Of a stretch of DNA of 40,391 nt, positions 28,864-40,243 are shown one piece after another; positions within the stretch are counted from its first letter, which is position 1; each line of letters begins with the position of its first letter. Source of the DNA: Paracoccaceae bacterium (GTDB taxonomy: Bacteria > Pseudomonadota > Alphaproteobacteria > Rhodobacterales > Rhodobacteraceae); the NCBI GenBank assembly GCA_902633655.1, contig CACPHA010000009.1:1-40391 (forward strand). Reading direction: 5' to 3'. Both the position numbers and the translations under genes were made by a program. Below the pieces are notes generated by a model that worked only from the letters and a program-made list of their open reading frames with translations, searched no databases and was not told where the DNA came from.

Positions 28864-30600
28864 TCATGCAACCTGTTTTATCAGAAACATTGGTGCAATT
28901 TTGGCTTTCATATCTTCGAGCCTATAGCTTTCACCATCAAATAAGCGTTGAACTGGTATTCCGTAATCGCTTTCAATCTTAGCCATCCTTGTCTTTGCTG
29001 TTTCTTTTTCTCCGATGTAAAACTCTGCTGCAGCTATAAAAAATAGAGTCATAGGACTAGGAATGCGTATTTCGTTAAGCAAAATTCTACTAGTGGTATA
29101 GTCCTCTTGCCAAAACTTTAATGTACCTTCGATCTGGAGTAGTAGATCAGACCCTGTTGGATTTATTTCTTTAGCTCTTGTCAACTCCTTTTCGGTTTCT
29201 TCTAAACGACCATCATACATAAATACTTCACAAAGTTTAGATGAAATGTACAGGTCGGATGGACATAGCTCTGCTGCGTGTTTATGGTGTCTGATTGATA
29301 AATCAAAATTGCCTTTGGCTCGCTGAATGGAGCCCATTATTCTGTTTGCTTCAGCATCATCGGGATCAATTTCTAAGGCCCTTTCAATCAATAAGTCTGC
29401 GTCATCAATCCATGTATCTGGGAAAGCGTTGGGAGCCCAATTTTGATAATTTGCCATGGAACACACTTTCCATGCCATAGCTCTCGGATAATTAGGTTCT
29501 AATTCAAGGGCTCTGGAAAAAAGAGTGTAAGCTTTTTCGGCATCACCATATGAAGTAATAGAGTTTCTATGGTGCTTAAGGCCCTTCAAAACGAGATCAT
29601 AAGCTCTTGCATCCTCCGGTGGCTTATTCGCGGAAGACCTGATTTCGTCTGCCTCTACTTGACCCACTATTTGATACGCAACAGATGAAGCGAGGTTTTC
29701 CTCAAGATCCCATAGGTCATCTTTTGAAGATTCGAACTTTTCTGACCAAATTGTATGATTGGTTTCTGTATTATCTAATTTAATATTAATTCTGATCCTT
29801 GAAGTGGTGCTTCTAACGCTTCCAGACAGAATATACCTGACCGATAATGCAGTGCCTATTTCTTTCGGCGAATGCTTGCCAGCACTAAAAGAAAAACTGG
29901 CATTGCTGGATGTGACCCTAAGTGATTTATATCTTGATAATGTGTTTATTAATCCCTCTGAAACACCCTCGCAGAAATACTGTTGTTCTTCGTCTGAGCT
30001 AAGATTTTTTAATTCTAAAATAGCTAAAGAACCTGGCACAACCTCAGGCTCAGATATTTTTTCTGTATCTGAAAACCCGTATCGGCCAGTTTGATGACCC
30101 GGTGACCAAACAAAAACCTCTGTTCGTTCAGAGATATTCTTTAAAGATATTGGTCCAACGTATTCAAAATTTTCTTTAGTTTTGGCGGTTAAGTTTTCCT
30201 GAGCGTTTTTGCTTATGTACACGCCTTCTGGTGATGAGGCAGCCTCGAGCCTTGCGGCAATGTTCACTGTATCTCCAAAAACATTTCCGTCAGAATCCAT
30301 TACATCGCCATGATGTATTCCAATTCTGAACAGCATTTTTCTATTTGCTGCTGACCCCATATTGAGACGAGCCATATCCGTTTGAATGTCAATCGCAGAA
30401 AGAGCTGCGGGTTCACTTGATGCGAACTCGGATACGATGCTGTCACCTGCCTCGTTAAAAACCTTTCCGTTGTGGTTTTTTATAAGTGCGTGCACATTCT
30501 TACGCCTAGCTGATAGAGTTTCCACAGTAGTTTCAGGATTTTCTCCCATCATTTTCGAAAAACCAACTACATCTAAAGCCATCACAGTTGCTTTACGCAT
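28864..30600 (-). CDS. Class III nucleotide cyclase with TolB/FlgO-like and TPR regions
   Basis: A 578-aa protein. Residues ~1-165 form a class III cyclase domain: metal Asp D10 in MALDVVGFSKMM, second Asp D53 in FNEAGDSIVSEF, and the transition-state region VFGDTVNIAARLEAAS with Asn and Arg. The Lys that usually selects adenine (KxxGD) is Asn here, as in many rhizobial relatives, so cAMP production is not certain. Residues ~190-320 resemble the TolB/FlgO-like domain (LAILELKNLSSDEEQQYFCE, ILSGSVRSTTSRIRI). Residues ~330-560 contain TPR helices (YTLFSRALELEPNYPRAMAW). This cyclase-TolB-TPR chain is common in alphaproteobacteria with unknown signals. GAGAAAAG precedes the ATG. No membrane span is seen, so it is probably cytosolic. 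Confidence 0.88.
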   Translation of the reverse strand: MRKATVMALDVVGFSKMMGENPETTVETLSARRKNVHALIKNHNGKVFNEAGDSIVSEFASSEPAALSAIDIQTDMARLNMGSAANRKMLFRIGIHHGDVMDSDGNVFGDTVNIAARLEAASSPEGVYISKNAQENLTAKTKENFEYVGPISLKNISERTEVFVWSPGHQTGRYGFSDTEKISEPEVVPGSLAILELKNLSSDEEQQYFCEGVSEGLINTLSRYKSLRVTSSNASFSFSAGKHSPKEIGTALSVRYILSGSVRSTTSRIRINIKLDNTETNHTIWSEKFESSKDDLWDLEENLASSVAYQIVGQVEADEIRSSANKPPEDARAYDLVLKGLKHHRNSITSYGDAEKAYTLFSRALELEPNYPRAMAWKVCSMANYQNWAPNAFPDTWIDDADLLIERALEIDPDDAEANRIMGSIQRAKGNFDLSIRHHKHAAELCPSDLYISSKLCEVFMYDGRLEETEKELTRAKEINPTGSDLLLQIEGTLKFWQEDYTTSRILLNEIRIPSPMTLFFIAAAEFYIGEKETAKTRMAKIESDYGIPVQRLFDGESYRLEDMKAKIAPMFLIKQVA

Positions 30601-31082
30601 ATCTTTTCTCGCCTAATAGAATCTCAAAAAGTAATAAATTCATTTCGACTCATGAGCCGTTACTTGTAGTGAGTTAAGCATAACTTAAAGTGGTTTGTGT
30701 AGCCTTAACTCTTACATTTTAACAGAATTGAACGCCAAATTTCACCAAGGTAATTGAATTAGAGATTCCAAAATGGATACGATTAAATATTTTGGATGAC
30801 TGCTTGTTCAAGTTGTTCCATTCGCCATCAATGCGATTTGGCCAAAAAACTATAAATTCAATAAAAATACATATTAAAATCAGGGCAGGATGTAATATCC
30901 TCCTATATTTCTTATAATCAGGTAGAAATCTAGACTGATAGCATGGGCATTTTATCTGAAGTGATAAGGCTAGTAAGGAAGTAGGATAGCTTCTTCTAGA
31001 ACAAACTTTCTTTGCTGCGTCCATAACACAATTGAAAGTATCTAAACTATTAATTACTTTGAAAAAAAATTGAGGAAATGAG
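30601..31082. other. Intergenic interval between divergent genes
   Basis: About 480 bp separating the leftward cyclase and the rightward ABC genes, so it should contain both promoters. A 136-codon minus-strand frame at 30719-31129 runs into the ABC gene, is Cys/Phe/Ile-rich and has no family features; it is not called. Confidence 0.4.
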
Positions 31083-32012
31083 TTGGACCACGTAATTTCG
31101 ATTAAAAACTTGAATAAAACTTTTGCCAATGGAGTAATGGCATTAAAGAACGTATCACTGGACGTAAACTCGGGTGAAATACTTGCTTTATTGGGCCCAA
31201 ATGGAGCAGGTAAAACTACATTAATTTCTATCGCTTGTGGATTGACCTATGCCTCATCTGGTCAAGTTTTTATCGCAGGCTACGACATTCGTAAAGATTA
31301 TAAAGCTGCTAGGCGGTTAGTAGGTTTGGTTCCACAAGAGATAGCACTGGAACGTTACGAAAATGTTCTTGATACAGTGCATTTTTCTCGTGGCCTCTTT
31401 GGTCTGCCTCCGGACAATGCTTTAGTTGAGAAAACTTTAAGATTGTTATCTCTTTGGGATAAGCGTGAAAGTTCTTTAAGAGCTCTTTCAGGAGGCATGA
31501 AACGTAGAGTTTTAATCGCTAAAGCACTAGTGCATGAGCCAACGATTATTTTTTTGGATGAGCCAAGTGCCGGTGTGGACGTGGAGCTCAGAAAAGAGAT
31601 GTGGGACGTAATTAAAGGGCTGAGAGATCAAGGGGCCACCGTAGTTTTAACAACCCATTATATCGAAGAAGCTGAAGAATTGGCTGATAGAATAGCGATA
31701 ATTGACAAGGGCGCAATCTCGTTGATCGAGCAGAAAGATCAATTAATAAAGCAAATGGGTGGTAAAAAAATCCACATAGATTTAACCGAGCCGTGCAGCT
31801 CTATTCCTGCTAATTTGCAAAAATATGATACACATGTAACTAGAGACAAGAAGAGTTTGGTTTATGTCTGTGATACCAAATATCGCGAAAAAGAAATTGG
31901 CCTATTTTTAAATGATTTGCATAAAACAAATCTGAATATTCGAGATATTACGACCAAAGAAAAGACATTAGAAGAAATTTTTATGTCCATTATCGAAGAA
32001 AGAAAACCATGA
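31083..32012 (+). CDS. ABC-2 type exporter ATPase, YadG-like
   Basis: A 309-aa ATPase matching the length and layout of YadG/NodI/DrrA-type export ATPases: Walker [11 protein letters not shown]-loop [11 protein letters not shown], signature LSGGMKRR, Walker [13 protein letters not shown] and switch His in [14 protein letters not shown]. It also has a C-terminal regulatory tail ending [16 protein letters not shown]. The start is TTG 31083 after GAGGAAATGAG; no ATG fits. The stop overlaps the permease start as ATGA. Together they should form a two-gene exporter in the inner membrane. The substrate is unknown; polysaccharide, lipid or drug export are all seen in the family. Confidence 0.9.
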
Positions 32013-32770
32013 ACCTATATTCAATTCGAGCTATTTATATATTCGAAATGAGTAGAACTTTTCGTACTTTACTTCAGTCAGTAATTGCACCCATTATATC
32101 AACCTCTTTATATTTCGTAGTTTTTGGGTCCGCTATCGGAAGTAGGATCCAGGCAATTGATAATGTCGATTATGGTTCCTTCATTGTGCCAGGCTTAATC
32201 ATGCTGACAGTTTTAGTACAAAGCACTAGTAATGCCGCTTTTGGCATTTATTTCCCAAAATTCATTGGCACGATCTATGAACCGCTTACTGCACCGATCT
32301 CATATTTTGAGATAGTTATAGGGTACGTGGGTGCAGCGACAACAAAGTCATTTAGTATTGGCTTGATAATATTACTTACGTCAAATTTATTTGTAGATGT
32401 AACAATCGCACATCCAGTATGGATGTTTTTATTTCTGTTGATGACCTGTGTTTCCTTTAGTCTATTCGGATTTATAATTGGTGTTTGGGCTAAAAACTTT
32501 GAACAATTAAGCTTGGTCACATCTCTGATGATAACCCCCCTTGTTTTCTTAGGAGGAAGTTTCTATTCGATATCGATGCTTCCGGAAATCTGGCAAAAAA
32601 TATCTTTATTCAACCCTATCTTCTATTTGGTATCAGGCTTTCGTTGGTCTTTCTATGAAACCGCAGATGTAGCTGTACATGTTAGCTTTATTGCAGTGCT
32701 GGCTTTCAGTCTGCTGAACTTAAGTCTAATTGGATTAATTTTTAAGACAGGTTATAAAATAAAGAGCTAA
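32009..32770 (+). CDS. ABC-2 type exporter permease, YadH-like
   Basis: A 253-aa ABC-2 permease with six predicted spans, close in size to E. coli YadH (256 aa). The family features are [20 protein letters not shown], the ABC-2 signature region around [20 protein letters not shown] followed by [11 protein letters not shown], and [18 protein letters not shown] near the end. It is coupled to the ATPase by a 4-bp overlap and its stop lies three bases from the stop of the convergent DUF1289 gene. Confidence 0.9.
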
Positions 32771-32773
32771 TAT

Positions 32774-32962
32774 CTATTTACTCTTCGTGTCAGTGATCTG
32801 TGATAAACGTTTCCTGAGCTCTTTTACGATGACATTGATTTCATATGGTTTCATTTTCTTCCATCGTTGACATTCTTGCCGAGTACGTCCACAGCCGGAG
32901 CACCAACCTTTCAGACCGGAGAAGTCACATATATCGATGCATGGACTTTTGCGGCGTTTCAC
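32774..32962 (-). CDS. DUF1289 tetracysteine protein, 62 aa
   Basis: A 62-aa protein of the DUF1289 family (PF06945). Four cysteines are arranged as CIDIC...GWCSGC, presumably a zinc or Fe-S knuckle, followed by a basic helix (RQECQRWKKMKPYE). It is the last gene of the leftward string that starts with the CobW GTPase, 43 bp after the 83-aa gene. Function unknown. A second DUF1289 protein lies at 39111-39989, on the far side of the zinc cluster. Confidence 0.85.
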   Translation of the reverse strand: MKRRKSPCIDICDFSGLKGWCSGCGRTRQECQRWKKMKPYEINVIVKELRKRLSQITDTKSK

Positions 32963-33005
32963 TTAATGCACCTATTAGTTTCCAAATTTCTCAACCAAAT
33001 TAATT

Positions 33006-33257
33006 TTATTCCAGAATATTTATATCGGTATCGACTATTTCGCTAATCGATTTGGCGATACGCCAATCTTTCCTTGAGCCATCTGCGTACCGCGCTGTTA
33101 TTACAGTTTCCACTGGTGGGCAATTAGGCTCATGGCACCTGAGTTCGGCAACAGCTATTACCGTGGAATCGGGCAGGTCAAACTGCGTGGAAACCAGGTC
33201 CTTAATCCAACGGACTGCATTACCGTCTGGCCGTTTTCGCTCAAATAGATTTTCCAC
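33006..33257 (-). CDS. Conserved 83-aa protein with HEPNCPP motif
   Basis: An 83-aa protein with the motif LRCHEPNCPPVETVITARYA at its centre. I recognise this as a conserved alphaproteobacterial small protein that tends to sit beside CobW genes, but I know of no assigned function. The Cys-His-Cys cluster could bind a metal (inference). Its start overlaps the end of the WD40 gene by 17 bp, so translation is probably coupled. The rest has a mixed alpha/beta look (VRWIKDLVSTQF; DWRIAKSISEIV). Confidence 0.8.
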   Translation of the reverse strand: MENLFERKRPDGNAVRWIKDLVSTQFDLPDSTVIAVAELRCHEPNCPPVETVITARYADGSRKDWRIAKSISEIVDTDINILE

Positions 33258-34320
33258 TTATGTCTCCTGCCCATAACTTTGCCCATAAAATGTGCCCATT
33301 ATCATCTCCTATCAGCACATGAGACAAAGATTCTGTAACAGCTATTGCGGTAACCGCTCCATCACTAGAACCCTTTAAGACAATTGGTTCCTTAACCTCG
33401 TCTATTTCTGCTAGAAGAACAGCACCATCGCCAAATCCAGCAAAAACAGCATTTTCACTTGAAAGAGATTGCACACAGGTTACTAGTTGTTTTCCTCCGT
33501 CTGCAACACAAACCGGCGCCCGTCCTAATGGTCCATCTTTACCATCGAATGGCCAACAAATTGCTTCGTTAGCTCCAGATGTAACGAGATGAGGCGTGCT
33601 GCCCACCCAAGAAAAGCTTTTAATCTTTGCCGGATATCCCGACATCGCAAGATCTGCTTTGTCTCGTAAACGCCAACCGTGTAATGCGTTTTCTTGCATT
33701 GCTGTTATGACATACTTACCGTCAGGGCTAAATGAAGCTGCGCCATGAAATCCTTTCCAAATCAGTTTAGATGATTTCCATTTTCGCTCTTTACTCTCCC
33801 AAATGGTTGCGCCCCCGTAGTGCGTAATCGCAAGACGCCTTCCTTTTGCGTCAAAAGCAAGCCCGCCCACTGTGCTCACATGTTCCAGGGCTGTTGCCTT
33901 ACTCTGTCCAATCGACCAAATGTGGGCTGTCTTGCCCGATGAGCAAGCATACTTACCTTTGGTAGCAGCCACGCAATCGACCCATTTTGTTCCGAATTCG
34001 GCAATTTCTTCTATTTGACCGTCCGATGATATTCTGAGGAATCTTCCATCATCACCTCCGGTGAAAACATTATGTCCGTCTGTGGTCATACAGAGGACTA
34101 CACCTTTGTGGGCCTTTAGTGTTGAGTGTGAAATCCCAGGCTGAAAGAACCTAATAGTACCATCTCCAAAGCCCACCACTATTGCCTCAGATAAGGTCAC
34201 TGCTGCAGTTACTGGAGCATCTAGTGTGAACTTTGTGCCTCTTCGCTCCAGTTCAGTCTCTTCAAAGCCGAACCGCCGCATCTTCCTGCGTGGCAGATTT
34301 TCTGTCACGCCGCTTTGCAC
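33241..34320 (-). CDS. WD40 repeat beta-propeller protein
   Basis: Up to 359 aa, with six or seven WD40-like blades readable as repeated 'GD...I..W' units, for example [74 protein letters not shown] and [19 protein letters not shown]. Such propellers are scaffolds for protein complexes. No signal peptide is visible, so it should be cytosolic. The GTG at 34320 overlaps the cobW stop by 16 bp; starts at GTG 34308 or ATG 34281 (just after AGGAAG) are also possible. It stands between the COG0523 GTPase and the 83-aa gene, an order I know from other alphaproteobacteria, but its role is not established. Confidence 0.85.
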
Positions 34321-35276
34321 GCTTCAAAGCCTTCTTTCAAACCCATATTTTCGACACCACGGCCAATAAAAACAACACGCGAGTTACGTGGTTTGTCTTC
34401 CGGCCAAATGCCCATCGGTGCTCCATCCATAAGCATGTGCACGCCTTGAAACACATAACGGTCATCAATACCCTCAAAATCCATTATTCCTTTAGATCGT
34501 AAAATATCTTGGCCTTTGGTTTGGAGTAGAGCTCCAAACCACTTTTGGAATTTCTCAAAGTCAAGTGGGGTGTCGGAAACGAACGAAACGCTTGTGATGT
34601 CATCGTCATGCTCATGGTCGTGATCTGAGTCCAGAAAATCAGGCTCTACTTCTAAAACTCGATCTAAGCTGAAAGCGTTTAGTCCAACTATTTCGTCCAG
34701 TGGAACTGTGCAATGTGATGTTCTTTTTATCTTCGCATATGGATTTATTTTTCGAATACGGGCTTCCACGCCTTCAAGATTTTTGCCTTCAATAAGGTCA
34801 GTTTTATTTAAAAGAACCACATCCGCGAATGCAATCTGTTCCTCAGCTTCATGGTGCTCCCCTAATTGGTTGTCTAAGTGCACAGCATCTGCCACGGTTA
34901 CAATTGCATCCAATTTAGTGCGATCTGCAACATCCTGATCTACAAAAAATGTCTGGGCCACGGGTGCTGGATCTGCAAGTCCAGTAGTTTCGACAATTAT
35001 TGCATCAAGCTGATCAGCTCGTTTCATAAGGCCGCTAAGTATCCTAATAAGGTCACCACGGACGGTGCAACAAATGCACCCATTGTTCATTTCAAATACT
35101 TCTTCATCCGCATCGACAACAAGATCGTTGTCGATACCCTCTTCGCCAAACTCATTTACGATTACTGCATATTTTTTACCATGACGCTCCGTAAGAATAC
35201 GATTAAGCAGTGTGGTTTTTCCAGCACCCAAAAATCCTGTCAAAACCGTCACGGGCACCTGTGAAGACTGAGTCAT
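34305..35276 (-). CDS. COG0523/CobW-family zinc metallochaperone GTPase
   Basis: About 323 aa. G3E GTPase motifs are Walker [11 protein letters not shown] (13-22), Walker B region ETTGLADP and NKTDL. The metal-binding CxCC motif is at 67-70 ([13 protein letters not shown]). A His/Asp-rich loop ([11 protein letters not shown]) links the GTPase domain to the CobW C-terminal domain. COG0523 proteins deliver metal, and several are Zur-regulated zinc chaperones (ZigA, ZNG1); the proximity of znuABC-zur argues for zinc rather than cobalt. I choose ATG 35276 because AAAGGA lies eight bases before it and the family N-terminus fits; an upstream frame to 35345 adds atypical residues. It leads the string cobW-WD40-83aa-DUF1289. 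Confidence 0.9.
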
Positions 35277-35482
35277 TGTATTTTCCTTTCTAGTATTTGA
35301 ATTTTTTAAGCCACCTTTAAAAGTTTTCCTTATTTCTTTGACCAAAGGTCATGGATATAAAAAGGATTGAGAAATATCAATTTCATTATGTAATTTTAAA
35401 ATCCATATAGGGAATTACCTCAGAATGCTGCTTGGCGTTTTAACATGTCCCTGAATGCTTTCTTCCAAATAGACCGTTTTTT

Positions 35483-35728
35483 TCATAAGTTTCTGTCGCG
35501 GGAAAGGTGTTCACTCTGTAATAAATTTAGGTACTCAAGGGCACTTTGTTGATCACCGGTTTTCATTAAAGCTTTTTGGTAAGCACGATGAACGGATACA
35601 GGTCGCCAGGGAAGTGCTGCAGTATTCAGCCAATCTCTTAATGTCTTTGGCATACGATCAAATTCCGACATAGGATTTGATGTCCTACGCTTTTTACGTA
35701 GCTTTGTTTCACCTAAATTACGTCTCAT
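35483..35728 (-). CDS. DUF6525-like small protein
   Basis: An 81-aa basic protein, MRRNLGETKLRKKRRTSNPM at the start, then FDRMPKTLRDWLNTAALPWR and RAYQKALMKTGDQQSALEYL. I match this by memory to a conserved alphaproteobacterial family annotated DUF6525, normally of the same length. Function unknown. It is co-directional with znuA and cobW but separated from both, so its operon membership is open. Confidence 0.7.
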   Translation of the reverse strand: MRRNLGETKLRKKRRTSNPMSEFDRMPKTLRDWLNTAALPWRPVSVHRAYQKALMKTGDQQSALEYLNLLQSEHLSRDRNL

Positions 35729-35801: not shown

Positions 35802-35836
35802 CATCTAGCCAGCCGTGAAATTTGGCTGGCTAGATG
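35802..35836. terminator. Perfect 13-bp hairpin downstream of znuA
   Basis: CATCTAGCCAGCC (35802-35814) pairs perfectly with GGCTGGCTAGATG (35824-35836) around a 9-base loop. It begins six bases beyond the znuA stop in the direction of znuA transcription. No U-tract follows on either strand, so it may be a weak or factor-assisted terminator or an mRNA-stabilising 3' hairpin. Confidence 0.7.
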
Positions 35837-35842
35837 ATTTGT

Positions 35843-36841
35843 CTATAGACACCCCGCCAATGTCTTGGCCATATTACGCAACAGATTTTCATAAAGACTT
35901 GCACCAGGTTCCAAGGTTACACCCAAAGGATCTATTACCCCAGTCTTGGACTCAGTGCCGGCCAAAACTGTTTTTACTAACCCGGGGTTATATTGAGGCT
36001 CTGATAGAACGCAATTTATACCCTCATTTTGTACGCGTTCCTGAATTTCAGAGATGCGTGCTGGGCTTGGATCAGTAGCATCACCCAAAGATATTGCGCC
36101 TGAAGCTGGAAATTTAAAACTTGTCTCGAAATATTGGTACGCATCGTGGAATACTACGAAGCTCTTTCCTCTTACAGGATCAAGAGTTGCGTTTATCTCT
36201 CCAATTAGAACGTCAATCTCCTCGCGCCCTTTAGCCGCATTCGCGAAATAGGTACCTGCGTTTTCTGGATCGATGGCAGACAGGCGTGCAGCGATTAGAT
36301 TTAGCCAAGTTTTCGCATTTTCCGTTGATAACCATGCGTGAGGATCGTGCTCTCCATGATCGTGTTCTGCATGATCATCATGATCATCTTTTTTGTCGTG
36401 GTCGTGATCATCGTGGTCATCATGATCATCTTTTTTGGCAGGATCGTCGTGATCATCATGATCACTGTGGTCGTGCTCTTCGAATAGTGCTCCCTCTCTG
36501 AAATCTAAAAGCTTAGTTTCGGGTTGCTCTAAGAGTGTCACTACATCGGCGTTAGCTGCCAGTGTTTCGACAGCTCCCTCCATCCAAGGAGTTAAGTCTT
36601 CTCCAATCCAAAAAACAACGTTAGCCTCTTGCAAGGACTTCGCGTCAGAGGGTTTTAAAGAATATGAATGAGGCGATGCACCAGCCGGTATAATTAAATT
36701 TGGTTCCCCAACGCCTGACATTATCCGGGCTACGAGTGAATGGACAGGAGCAATATCAGCTGCGACAGATGGTACATCGGCAACAGCTGTGCTCGCCATT
36801 AATAAAGAGATTGCTGACAAAGAGATTACTTTTCTGGACAC
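35843..36841 (-). CDS. znuA: ZnuA, periplasmic zinc-binding protein
   Basis: A 332-aa cluster A-I substrate-binding protein of the zinc ABC importer. A signal peptide (MSRKVISLSAISLLMASTAV) is followed by the mature start. Likely zinc ligands are H58 in AGASPHSY, H168 in EHDPHAWL and the His of FVVFHDAYQYFE. Between them, residues ~121-168 form a very His/Asp-rich loop (about twenty His), longer than in E. coli ZnuA and typical of zinc- rather than manganese-specific members. The protein works with ZnuB and ZnuC, encoded divergently across the zur promoter region. At DNA level the loop is a low-complexity GATCAT-rich stretch at 36350-36480. Confidence 0.95.
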   Translation of the reverse strand: MSRKVISLSAISLLMASTAVADVPSVAADIAPVHSLVARIMSGVGEPNLIIPAGASPHSYSLKPSDAKSLQEANVVFWIGEDLTPWMEGAVETLAANADVVTLLEQPETKLLDFREGALFEEHDHSDHDDHDDPAKKDDHDDHDDHDHDKKDDHDDHAEHDHGEHDPHAWLSTENAKTWLNLIAARLSAIDPENAGTYFANAAKGREEIDVLIGEINATLDPVRGKSFVVFHDAYQYFETSFKFPASGAISLGDATDPSPARISEIQERVQNEGINCVLSEPQYNPGLVKTVLAGTESKTGVIDPLGVTLEPGASLYENLLRNMAKTLAGCL

Positions 36842-36866: not shown

Positions 36867-36877
36867 ATGGATAAGAT

Positions 36878-36890
36878 GTTATATCGTAAC
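36878..36890. promoter_or_regulatory. Zur-box-like site 2
   Basis: GTTATATCGTAAC, extended symmetrically to ATGTTATATCGTAACAT (36876-36892), lies midway between znuA and zur. It shares the GTTA...TAAC arms with site 1. Binding here could repress both znuA and the zur-znuCB operon when zinc is sufficient. Confidence 0.65.
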
Positions 36891-36936
36891 ATCCTATAGC
36901 TGTACAAAAATGGGCTTGCAATAGGAGTTTGTAGTT

Positions 36937-37419
36937 TTGGCAAATAATACCGATGGCCAAACCAAAAGGACTTCAACTTTTCGTGAAAAAATGATTTTTG
37001 CAGAACAATATTGCGCTAAAAACGACCTTCAATTTACACCTGTTAGGCGAAAAGTTTTAGAGCTTCTCTTGAAGAGCGATAGAGCACTTGGTGCATATGA
37101 ACTGCTTGATCTCCTGCGTGAGGTAGGTTTCAAACCTCAGCCACCAGTAGCTTACAGAGCCCTGGAATTTCTGATCAAATACGGATTTGCTCATAAGGTC
37201 GAACACCTGAATGCATTTGTAGCATGCATCCACCCTGGAAAAGAGCACTCGCCTGCGTTCATGATATGTCGAAGCTGTGACTCTGTGTCAGAGATGGATA
37301 CATTACGGTCAGATTCTATGTTAGCTGAGAACTTAATTTCTCAGGGGTTCAAAGTGGAAGAAGCAGTGATAGAAGCTCGAGGACTCTGTGAAGCTTGCGC
37401 TGATGTCGAAGTAAAATGA
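36937..37419 (+). CDS. zur: Zur, Fur-family zinc-uptake repressor
   Basis: A 160-aa Fur-superfamily protein. The N-terminal winged helix spans about 15-90 (FTPVRRKVLELLL, then PPVAYRALEFLIKYGFAHKV). The dimer/metal domain has the structural zinc pairs CRSC and CEAC, and His residues in HLNAFVACIHPGKEHS, typical of Zur rather than Fur. The start is TTG 36937 with AGGAG nine bases before it. It is the first gene of a rightward operon: its stop overlaps znuC as ATGA. Together with the two palindromes in front of it this implies autoregulation and control of znuA. The gene order zur-znuC-znuB divergent from znuA is standard in alphaproteobacteria. Confidence 0.92.
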   Translation: MANNTDGQTKRTSTFREKMIFAEQYCAKNDLQFTPVRRKVLELLLKSDRALGAYELLDLLREVGFKPQPPVAYRALEFLIKYGFAHKVEHLNAFVACIHPGKEHSPAFMICRSCDSVSEMDTLRSDSMLAENLISQGFKVEEAVIEARGLCEACADVEVK

Positions 37420-39110: not shown

Positions 39111-39989
39111 TCACATAGCTGGATAAAAGATAGCGCCAGGTAGGTATGCCCTTGGTAGCTCCATTCCAACAGGAAGTGCGCGTTCGGATAAAAGATGATC
39201 TGGTAAAAGGTGAGTGTGGGGGCCAATGGGTGAATTAGCGTTTGGTGTAGGAATTTGTCCCTGTACTTCGATTCTACCTAGGGCAGTTTCAACAACTCGC
39301 GTTGGACTATCATATCTGAGTGGTCCAGAAATTTTGGGTAGCGCAACATCAAAACTTTGTCCACTACATCGGGTAAGAGCTTTCTGTGACTCACCTTCGT
39401 TTACCCGAACGCAAAAGCGCGCTTCTTTGCGGCCCAGCCCAAGATCAAAAACCCTTTTGGCACTCTCTAGGATTAGTGGATTTACATCCTCACCGAGGTC
39501 AGCAACATTTTCAGTAATGGGAAGCCTGCCTCGGTCCCGTTTTACTGCTAAAACTACATGGGGCCTAAGCAGTTCATTAGGCGGATCAAAATTCAACGCT
39601 CTTACATCGTCATTTATCAACATTTTTATAGCGCCATTTTGGGTAAATGCGGTTATCATGCCATCTGTGCATTCAGCAAGTTTAGGCGCGTCACCTACCA
39701 CTGTAAATTCTGCTACAGCTCCAACGACACCCATCACCCAAGTTCCTTGGCAATTATTCAGTGAGGAAAGCACAAAATTCTGTATTTCTTCAGTTGTCCA
39801 AGGGAACCTGCGGCATTTCACACCTAACTCATCAAGACGCTGCGGAATTTTTTTCCAGATGCGTTGCCTCCATGCTTCAGACTTTGTACGCCAATGATCC
39901 AATTCTGAACGACTGCGCCCGCAACCTAGACACCATCCTGTCTTTTCATCAAGTCTACAGATACCAGTACATGGGCTCGATGCTCTCAT
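39111..39989 (-). CDS. DUF1289 protein with ~240-aa C-terminal domain
   Basis: About 292 aa. The N-terminus carries the DUF1289 tetracysteine module SPCTGICRLDEKTGWCLGC followed by GRSRSELDHWRTKSEA. The remaining ~240 residues form a separate domain I do not recognise (TWVMGVVGAVAEFTVVGDAP; RPHVVLAVKRDRGRLPITEN; GPHTHLLPDHLL near the end). I prefer ATG 39989 (AAAGGCG six bases upstream) over ATG 40043, which adds 18 residues before the module. It faces znuB, separated by 160 bp. The two DUF1289 proteins flanking the zinc genes may both handle metal, but this is inference. Confidence 0.75.
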   Translation of the reverse strand: MRASSPCTGICRLDEKTGWCLGCGRSRSELDHWRTKSEAWRQRIWKKIPQRLDELGVKCRRFPWTTEEIQNFVLSSLNNCQGTWVMGVVGAVAEFTVVGDAPKLAECTDGMITAFTQNGAIKMLINDDVRALNFDPPNELLRPHVVLAVKRDRGRLPITENVADLGEDVNPLILESAKRVFDLGLGRKEARFCVRVNEGESQKALTRCSGQSFDVALPKISGPLRYDSPTRVVETALGRIEVQGQIPTPNANSPIGPHTHLLPDHLLSERALPVGMELPRAYLPGAIFYPAM

Positions 39990-40243
39990 AAAAACGCCTT
40001 TAAGTATTGGACCACTTTCATTACCTTTAAAATTGGATCGCATTTTCCCATTGGGTATAAGTTGACCAAAAATTTTAACTAATTAAGGTGATAATACTTT
40101 TGCCTTTAAAGTGGCCGAAAAATTTTGGCTCACTCGTTGGTTTAGAGTATTATTCATTTAAGGTAGCTATTGATTTAATTCTGTACTATCTTCCCTGGCA
40201 AAGAATTTACGGTCAAGGTCTGGTCTGGTTGAAAATGAATTAC

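What the first reader, a model, noticed from the sequence alone, without database searches (positions are those of the whole stretch)
32774..35728. Candidate undescribed zinc-allocation operon: COG0523 GTPase, WD40 propeller, HEPNCPP protein and DUF1289
Four leftward genes follow each other with overlaps (cobW/WD40 16 bp, WD40/83-aa 17 bp) and a 43-bp gap to DUF1289, right beside znuA-zur-znuCB. The GTPase has CxCC and a His-rich loop and is the likely metal source. The WD40, 83-aa and DUF1289 proteins have no assigned function; two of them carry conserved Cys/His clusters that could be clients or acceptors. WD40 propellers commonly scaffold transfers between proteins. I infer one pathway that moves zinc to a target under zinc starvation.
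Basis: partly seen in the sequence, partly recalled or inferred. Interest (0 to 1): 0.6.

Follow-up and report, generated by a model that had tools for sequence, protein, structure and literature searches.

The report
Small partner protein of zinc GTPases
Bacteria short of zinc keep three genes together (a zinc-handling GTPase, a propeller-shaped protein and a small unnamed protein), and the small protein turns out to sit beside such GTPases in many different settings, which makes it a likely missing partner in how cells hand out scarce zinc.

Summary
The four genes are real, at the stated coordinates and overlaps. Three of them, COG0523 GTPase, WD40 propeller and the 83-aa protein (P83), form a conserved operon: 77 of 80 named-genome loci carry them in this order, and the other 3 contigs end too soon. 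It belongs with zinc starvation: in 21 of 27 loci the best Zur box lies just upstream of a COG0523, zur or znu gene (2.4 expected). In the window the box is at znuA/zur, none at cobW. GTPase-WD40-znuABC clustering was reported in 2009 (PMC2770081), so that part is known. New here: P83 belongs to a family without Pfam or NCBIfam model that accompanies COG0523 GTPases. Of 57 P83-family places in sampled genomes, 45 have a COG0523 gene within 3 kb (0.17 expected for the first 35), 6 only the WD40, 3 only znu/zur or hisI genes close by, 3 none of these. These GTPases fall in several clades. DUF1289 is a lineage-specific extra. Best reading: P83 is a dedicated zinc-relay or adaptor partner of COG0523 GTPases, WD40 a cytosolic scaffold. 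Biochemistry is untested.

The parts
34305..35276 (-). COG0523 (CobW-type) GTPase: Walker [17 protein letters not shown], His-rich DHDHEHDDD loop, CobW_C domain
   Evidence: nearest solved structure E. coli YjiA 1nij, E 6e-58; the only CobW_C gene found in the held 55.6%-complete genome
33241..34320 (-). WD40 beta-propeller, probably cytosolic (no N-terminal hydrophobic stretch by eye); AlphaFold2 mean pLDDT 88.8
   Evidence: conserved WVD, CSSG, MQEN, WKGSH, TSGA, WPFDGKxGPMGR stretches
33006..33257 (-). P83: 83-aa protein, alpha-beta-beta-beta-alpha model (pLDDT 86.1), conserved ELxCHEPxCPPxET loop (Cx4C); member of an unnamed family linked to COG0523 GTPases
32774..32962 (-). DUF1289 protein (PF06945), lineage-specific accessory gene
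36875..36893 (.). Zur box GATGTTATATCGTAACATC in the divergent znuA/zur promoter region; best site in the 40 kb (19.8 bits, next 10.6)
   Evidence: matrix from 5 Caulobacter Zur sites printed in PMC4176598
35483..35728 (-). DUF6525 protein between znuA and cobW; not part of the conserved trio
   Evidence: E 4e-26; also near znuA in L027 and L099
35802..35836 (.). 14-bp hairpin after znuA; possible terminator or attenuator, no T-run on the minus strand
   Evidence: sequence
35843..36841 (-). znuA, zinc-binding protein of the uptake system, possible first gene of the transcript
   Evidence: PF01297 E 2e-63
36937..37419 (+). zur repressor, divergent from znuA
   Evidence: NF008646, E 6e-37, 127 bits, below its cut-off of 167

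Best explanation
The trio is a zinc-starvation module. Shown: COG0523 GTPase, WD40 and P83 genes form a conserved, mostly overlapping operon in zinc-uptake/Zur contexts, and P83 homologues accompany COG0523 GTPases of several clades. Inferred: the GTPase is a GTP-gated zinc carrier; P83 is its dedicated small partner, which through its Cx4C loop takes zinc from (or positions it on) the GTPase and hands it to particular apo-enzymes, a role like that of HypA beside HypB or UreE beside UreG; the WD40 propeller is a cytosolic docking platform that holds P83 and the GTPase, in some lineages, at a client. DUF1289 is an optional lineage-specific addition.
For: Order cobW-WD40-P83 in 77 of 80 loci, the other three (L034, L057, L077) being cut by the contig end before cobW (80 kept of 256 relatives); all three frames read out on one strand in 74 of 80. 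57 P83-family places in sampled genomes: 45 with a COG0523 gene within 3 kb; for the first 35 places 25 observed against 0.166 expected from each genome's own COG0523 count. Of 17 places not met before the family model was made, 16 have COG0523 or WD40 nearby and the other znuA/zur. Linked GTPases fall in at least four groups of a COG0523 tree. Plasmids: of 17 matched records 10 have COG0523 directly before P83 and one the full trio. WD40-P83 pairs without cobW and cobW-P83 pairs without WD40 both exist, so each pair stands alone. P83 also sits beside zinc enzymes: a second hisI copy (G033, G145) and a zinc-type alcohol dehydrogenase (six genomes, five plasmids). Cys pair kept in 27 of 35 genome places and 17 of 17 plasmid places (80 of 80 contigs too, but those were found with a CHEPxCP pattern). 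Best Zur box at a COG0523, zur or znu start in 21 of 27 loci against 2.4 expected.
Against: No physical interaction, metal content or phenotype is known. P83 is rare: 14 of 385 sampled class genomes have it, while 29 of 31 genomes checked have COG0523 genes, mostly several, so it is no general requirement. Two genomes with P83 have no CobW_C gene (G048, G432), and three places (G432, G651, G748) show no COG0523, WD40 or znu gene. Eight of 35 lack the full Cys pair, six of them dehydrogenase-linked, at least four of which end in -CC instead, so Cx4C relay cannot be universal. On five plasmids P83 stands beside the dehydrogenase with no COG0523 match in the 8-10 kb fetched. P83's model matches nothing clearly in the PDB. 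In the window no Zur box stands at cobW itself.
Confidence: 0.5

Rival explanations
1. P83 is a client: a small zinc protein (or a zinc-sparing substitute) that the GTPase metallates, with WD40 as its working partner. The gene pair then reflects chaperone and target.
For: Nha3-type COG0523 genes sit next to their client genes (PMC2770081 passages); WD40-P83 pairs exist without a nearby GTPase (G475, G696, G718, G703, G811, G917); Cx4C loop conserved.
Against: P83 accompanies GTPases of several clades and also other zinc-enzyme genes, a hisI copy and an alcohol dehydrogenase, which are better clients; dehydrogenase-linked members that lost the cysteines stay close to the GTPase.
Confidence: 0.22
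2. Co-regulation only: the genes share Zur control and travel as a zinc-starvation island, but P83 and WD40 do unrelated jobs such as buffering zinc.
For: Other genes lie in the same islands: znu, zur, FecB/FecCD-type ABC transporter, DUF1636, DUF1826, hisI; G048 and G872 have P83 beside znuA/zur only.
Against: Those neighbours vary, while the order of the trio does not; adjacency to COG0523 also holds in dehydrogenase clusters where no znuA or znuB match was found in the fetched stretch (G133, G298, G403, G492, G569, G572).
Confidence: 0.18
3. One reading: one linear zinc hand-over GTPase to WD40 to P83 or DUF1289 as acceptors.
For: All four genes follow each other here and in L031, L032, L040, L049, L091, L099; trio-linked DUF1289 tends to be an extra copy: of 17 genomes, 7 with a DUF1289 beside the trio hold 2-3 DUF1289 matches (one of L038's two reads with stops), and the other 10 hold 0-1.
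Against: DUF1289 was not found at the locus in 68 of 80 relatives; L103's genome has one copy only, on the other strand of a trio; WD40 is missing from many GTPase-P83 loci.
Confidence: 0.07

Closest known systems
COG0523 subfamily 5 clusters (Haas et al. 2009, PMC2770081; passages read)
   Same: COG0523 GTPase next to WD40-repeat genes and znuABC, several downstream of predicted Zur sites; the subfamily that holds most eukaryotic members
   Different: The passages seen name no small P83-type gene; the supplement could not be opened, and the window protein's place in that clade was not tested on a tree
HypB/HypA and UreG/UreE (G3E GTPases with a metal-handling partner)
   Same: Proposed logic: GTPase plus partner that passes metal on (PMC9164220, passages read)
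   Different: P83 has no family match in Pfam or NCBIfam and no clear fold match; zinc instead of nickel is inferred
AztD, periplasmic beta-propeller zinc chaperone (PMC6689063, passages read)
   Same: Beta-propeller in zinc-uptake loci, CobW genes nearby
   Different: AztD is periplasmic; the WD40 here has no visible signal peptide and no hit to the AztD model, which an AztD-like control does hit (E 5e-111)
ZNG1 with methionine aminopeptidase 1 (PMC10642216, passages read)
   Same: COG0523-family protein thought to deliver zinc to an enzyme in deficiency
   Different: Eukaryotic; no such companion genes in the passages seen; client here unknown
Paracoccus denitrificans pden1338-1340 (PMC5387054, passages read)
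   Same: COG0523 gene with a Zur motif plus two hypothetical genes, induced 13.2-, 10.6- and 8.6-fold in zinc-depleted medium
   Different: Whether the two are WD40 and P83 could not be checked here

Membership tests
COG0523 / G3E GTPase | P-loop, CxCC motif, NKxD, cobW and CobW_C domains | tested here: met
COG0523 subfamily 5 (Haas 2009) | genome clustering with WD40 genes and znuABC, Zur sites | tested here: met
COG0523 subfamily 5 (Haas 2009) | place in the subfamily 5 clade with eukaryotic ZNG1 | not testable with these tools
   the paper's tree files are supplements (0 look-ups); no eukaryotic reference set held
WD40 repeat proteins | WD40 repeats, beta-propeller fold | tested here: met
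   PF00400 34.3 bits over cut-off 27; model and Foldseek E 4e-14
AztD | exported propeller, AztD family model | tested here: not met
   no hydrophobic N-terminus by eye (no signal-peptide program run); no hit to NF038015 AztD at E 1, while the AztD-like L025 protein hits it at E 5e-111 (370.8 bits, cut-off 400)
HypA / UreE-type partner | sequence or fold relation to HypA or UreE | tested here: inconclusive
   no family or PDB sequence match; no clear fold match
HypA / UreE-type partner | binds the GTPase and the metal | not testable with these tools
   needs protein work
DUF1289 (PF06945) | family score over cut-off | tested here: met
   53.1 bits, cut-off 27
Zur regulon (window operon) | Zur box in the promoter of the transcript | tested here: inconclusive
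   box at znuA/zur only; read-through past the hairpin 35802-35836 unknown

The most novel reading that the evidence does not exclude
P83 defines an undescribed family of small COG0523 partner proteins, the zinc counterpart of HypA/UreE, used by several COG0523 subfamilies to pass zinc to chosen apo-enzymes (HisI, zinc alcohol dehydrogenases and others), with the WD40 propeller as a cytosolic assembly platform in Zur-regulated versions, including those of streamlined ocean bacteria.
Probability: 0.33. Interest if true: 0.8.

Novelty: new variant of a known kind. Interest (0 to 1): 0.62.

Why it matters
How COG0523 GTPases find and load their targets is an open question; PMC9164220 (passages) states that many are uncharacterized and their clients unknown. 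A small conserved companion gene gives a concrete handle: it can be deleted, purified and used as bait. Several loci point to testable clients (the second HisI, a zinc alcohol dehydrogenase). The family has no Pfam or NCBIfam model and is annotated 'hypothetical' or, in three plasmid records, 'nitrate reductase', so it is easily overlooked. The trio also occurs in ocean bacteria labelled SAR116 and Pelagibacteraceae, some with small genomes, which hints at value in zinc-poor water (inference).

Tried and rejected
Zur box directly upstream of cobW in the window: none convincing (best 9-11 of 16-18 positions, rank 38 or lower). Known fold for P83: Foldseek best E 0.05, VIA-align best Z 5.6 (YpeB), HPF/RaiA near 4; too weak to use. 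PDB sequence search with the P83 profile: nothing under E 0.45. P83 in viral contigs: 18 pattern matches, none a relative. Gene fusion as proof of partnership: of 154 P83 domains, 18 lie in frames with over 90 further residues; only L022 showed COG0523-like residues after P83, and that copy looks degenerate, so it is not used. L005/L028 (G054) looked like a chance match, was not found again with the profile and was dropped. The ABC-2 genes 31083-32770 were considered as znuGHI-like zinc genes; only a weak site (10.6 bits at 30708, below the shuffle mean maximum of 12.7) lies before them.

Limits of the tree (quick method, SH-aLRT only): the row L102_trio is a mis-picked neighbouring GTPase; the six 'unl2' rows, labelled unlinked, are further GTPases from fetched P83 or WD40 loci, some of them near P83; long branches meet. 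Only the separation into groups is used.

Relatedness: places in one clade are not independent, so the P value printed overstates; the expected count does not depend on this. Of the 22 new places, five lie on contigs of the same length as L037, L082, L091, L093 and L095 already seen, and L037 was a row of the model.
Full report
WHAT IS THERE. znuA (35843-36841, -) and zur-znuC-znuB (+) are next to it; DUF6525 (35483-35728) stands between znuA and cobW. P83 matches no Pfam or NCBIfam model, and the 19 family members scanned gave only stray hits of single members at E 0.05 or worse.

THE TRIO IS A CONSERVED UNIT. A scan of 84,980 species genomes with a P83 alignment gave 256 relatives; the best 80 became loci. 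All 80 have the WD40 gene directly before P83, and 77 have the GTPase gene directly before WD40; in the other three (L034, L057, L077) the contig ends first. In 74 of 80 all three frames were read out on one strand, mostly with gaps of -16/-17 bp or -4/+10 bp. The records are labelled Rhodobacteraceae and kin, SAR116, Geminicoccaceae, Pelagibacteraceae and unclassified Alphaproteobacteria; one short contig (L035) is labelled Anaerolineae, perhaps a binning error. Many of the 80 are close kin, so the count is not 80 independent cases; at 90% identity 30 WD40 and 33 P83 sequences remain among these, the window and the genome loci. The trio is patchy: the WD40 was found in 4 of 196 genomes of the window's order.

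ZINC CONTROL. A matrix from five Zur sites printed for Caulobacter (PMC4176598, passages) finds its best window site at 36875-36893, GATGTTATATCGTAACATC, 19.8 bits against 10.6 for the next; the site lies between divergent znuA and zur. In 30 mononucleotide shuffles of the window the highest chance score was 19.5, so the site's place counts as much as its score. In 27 loci examined, the best site lies within 450 bp upstream of a COG0523, zur, znuA or znuC start in 21, against 2.4 expected. Depending on lineage the box stands before cobW (L038, L092, L021), before zur followed by cobW (L031, L037, L093) or at znuA/znuC (L043; L107, labelled Pelagibacteraceae). The six misses are L049, L082, L036, L103, L023 and L102; in L049 and L082 the top sites lie about 470-530 bp before cobW, probably at a zur start that the script did not catch, and in L036 the second-best site lies 131 bp before cobW. 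In the window itself nothing comparable stands before cobW, and a 14-bp hairpin follows znuA, so joint transcription with znuA is possible but not shown.

P83 IS A WIDER FAMILY TIED TO COG0523 GTPASES. With profile searches P83-family genes were found in 7 of 196 genomes of the order, 14 of 385 of the class, 14 of 299 of the phylum sample and 23 of 280 of the family, nearly one genome per genus: 57 different places in all, the window included. For the first 35 the distance to the nearest CobW_C gene was measured in each genome: 25 lie within 3 kb, 0.166 expected from each genome's number of such genes. Of 22 further places 20 have a COG0523 gene and one only the WD40 nearby, and the last (G872, with a stop codon in the match) is beside znuA/zur. 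Altogether 45 of 57 with COG0523, 6 with the WD40 only (G475, G696, G718, G703, G811, G917), 3 with znu/zur or a second hisI close by (G033, whose nearest COG0523 is 5.8 kb away, G048, G872), 3 with none of these (G432, G651, G748). Kin are not independent, and five of the 22 were contigs already seen; of the 17 others 16 are linked to COG0523 or WD40.

THE GTPASES DIFFER. On a quick tree of 57 COG0523 proteins the P83-linked ones fall into separate groups: the window's group (SH-aLRT 99), a group with longer GTPases such as the 405-aa one of G696 (96), a group beside hisI or azt genes (80), and a group beside a zinc-type alcohol dehydrogenase (87); linked and unlinked labels change 9 times, one change being due to the mis-picked L102 row. 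Arrangements seen: cobW-WD40-P83; cobW-P83 without WD40 (for example G634, G616, G762, G655); WD40-P83 without cobW; and cobW-WD40 without P83 in the stretch fetched (L026, L173, L179, L187; in L190 the stretch ends too soon). In G033 and G145 P83 follows the second of two hisI genes. In G133, G298, G403, G492, G569 and G572 it faces a zinc-type alcohol dehydrogenase that is followed by the GTPase.

NAMED ORGANISMS. Among plasmids, 17 records match the window P83, and all 17 best places were opened. Gemmobacter aquarius has the full trio after metal ABC transporter genes and a Fur-family gene. Ten have COG0523 directly before P83: Sinorhizobium numidicum (two strains), S. chiapasense pSchITTGS70b, Phyllobacterium zundukense (two plasmids), Shinella and Mesorhizobium huakuii with azt genes close by, Mesorhizobium B1-1-8 with a metal ABC permease, Sinorhizobium RAC02 (unannotated; znu-like genes and COG0523 by tblastn), and Agrobacterium rubi, where a Fur-family gene and two more GTPase genes are near. 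Five (L195, L200, L203, L207, L208) have P83 facing a dehydrogenase 64-65% identical to that of G569, with no COG0523 match in the 8-10 kb fetched. One, on a Calothrix plasmid, lies among metE, smtB and cation-transport genes. Three of these proteins bear the product name 'nitrate reductase'.

PROTEINS. P83's model is helix-strand-strand-strand-helix, pLDDT 86, with the Cx4C loop between strands 1 and 2; no solved structure matches well. The cysteines are kept in 27 of 35 genome places and 17 of 17 plasmid places; six of the eight exceptions are dehydrogenase-linked, and four of those are seen to end in -CC. The 80 contigs all keep them, but they were found with a pattern containing them. The WD40 model is a beta-propeller, pLDDT 89.

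DUF1289. It follows the trio on the same strand in 6 of 80 loci and lies on the other strand close by in 6. The 17 genomes checked have 0-3 DUF1289 matches, so closeness is unlikely to be chance; 7 genomes with a DUF1289 beside the trio have 2-3 matches, the other 10 have 0-1. Most relatives do without it at the locus. It is an accessory, not core.

MECHANISM AND NOVELTY. The best-supported reading is a Zur-linked zinc-allocation module in which P83 is a dedicated partner of COG0523 GTPases and the WD40 protein a scaffold. Everything beyond gene linkage, conservation and control sites is inference. The GTPase-WD40-znu cluster is known (PMC2770081, passages). For P83 I found no description in ten searches of the held library (listings); most subscription papers and the Haas supplement were not readable, and a COG0523 review sought as PMC8360895 is not held. 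A published lead is P. denitrificans pden1338-1340, a Zur-motif COG0523 gene with two hypothetical genes induced 8.6- to 13.2-fold by zinc depletion (PMC5387054, passages).

Recounting changed the DUF1289 copy count, the plasmid count (10 directly adjacent plus one trio) and several wordings; searches confirmed the dehydrogenase loci, the AztD control and the FecB/FecCD and DUF1636 neighbours.

Noticed in passing
window 39111-40043 (-): DUF1289 fused to DUF6925, convergent with znuB; so both DUF1289 genes found in the held genome lie about 7 kb apart, either side of the znu/zur genes.
   Followed up: partly
window 35483-35728 (-): DUF6525 gene beside znuA; the same family lies near znuA in L027 and L099, and 3.3 kb after P83 in L102.
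   Followed up: no
L031, L037, L041, L049, L091, L093 and L193: An iron/metallophore-type ABC transporter (Peripla_BP_2 and FecCD shown for L037) sits beside the zur-cobW-WD40-P83 operon or trio; DUF1636 genes are there in L031 (shown), L049, L091 (same cluster) and L193, DUF1826 in L193.
   Followed up: partly
L120, L138-L142; L195, L200, L203, L207, L208: Clusters in which P83 faces a zinc-type alcohol dehydrogenase, with a COG0523 GTPase after it in the first six and none seen in the plasmid five; in the first six P83 has lost Cx4C, in the five it is kept.
   Followed up: partly
L199 (Calothrix plasmid AP018291.1): P83-like gene in a cyanobacterial cluster with metE, smtB and cation transporters, the only clear one seen outside Alphaproteobacteria apart from the doubtful Anaerolineae contig L035.
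   Followed up: no
L196, L197, L205: P83-family proteins carry the product name 'nitrate reductase' in three plasmid records, most likely a mislabel.
   Followed up: no
   Followed up: partly
L022 (G342 contig 117) 1041-1601: A degenerate P83 copy runs in frame into COG0523-like C-terminal residues.
   Followed up: partly
window 28864-30600 (-): Adenylate/guanylate cyclase domain joined to TPR repeats.
   Followed up: no
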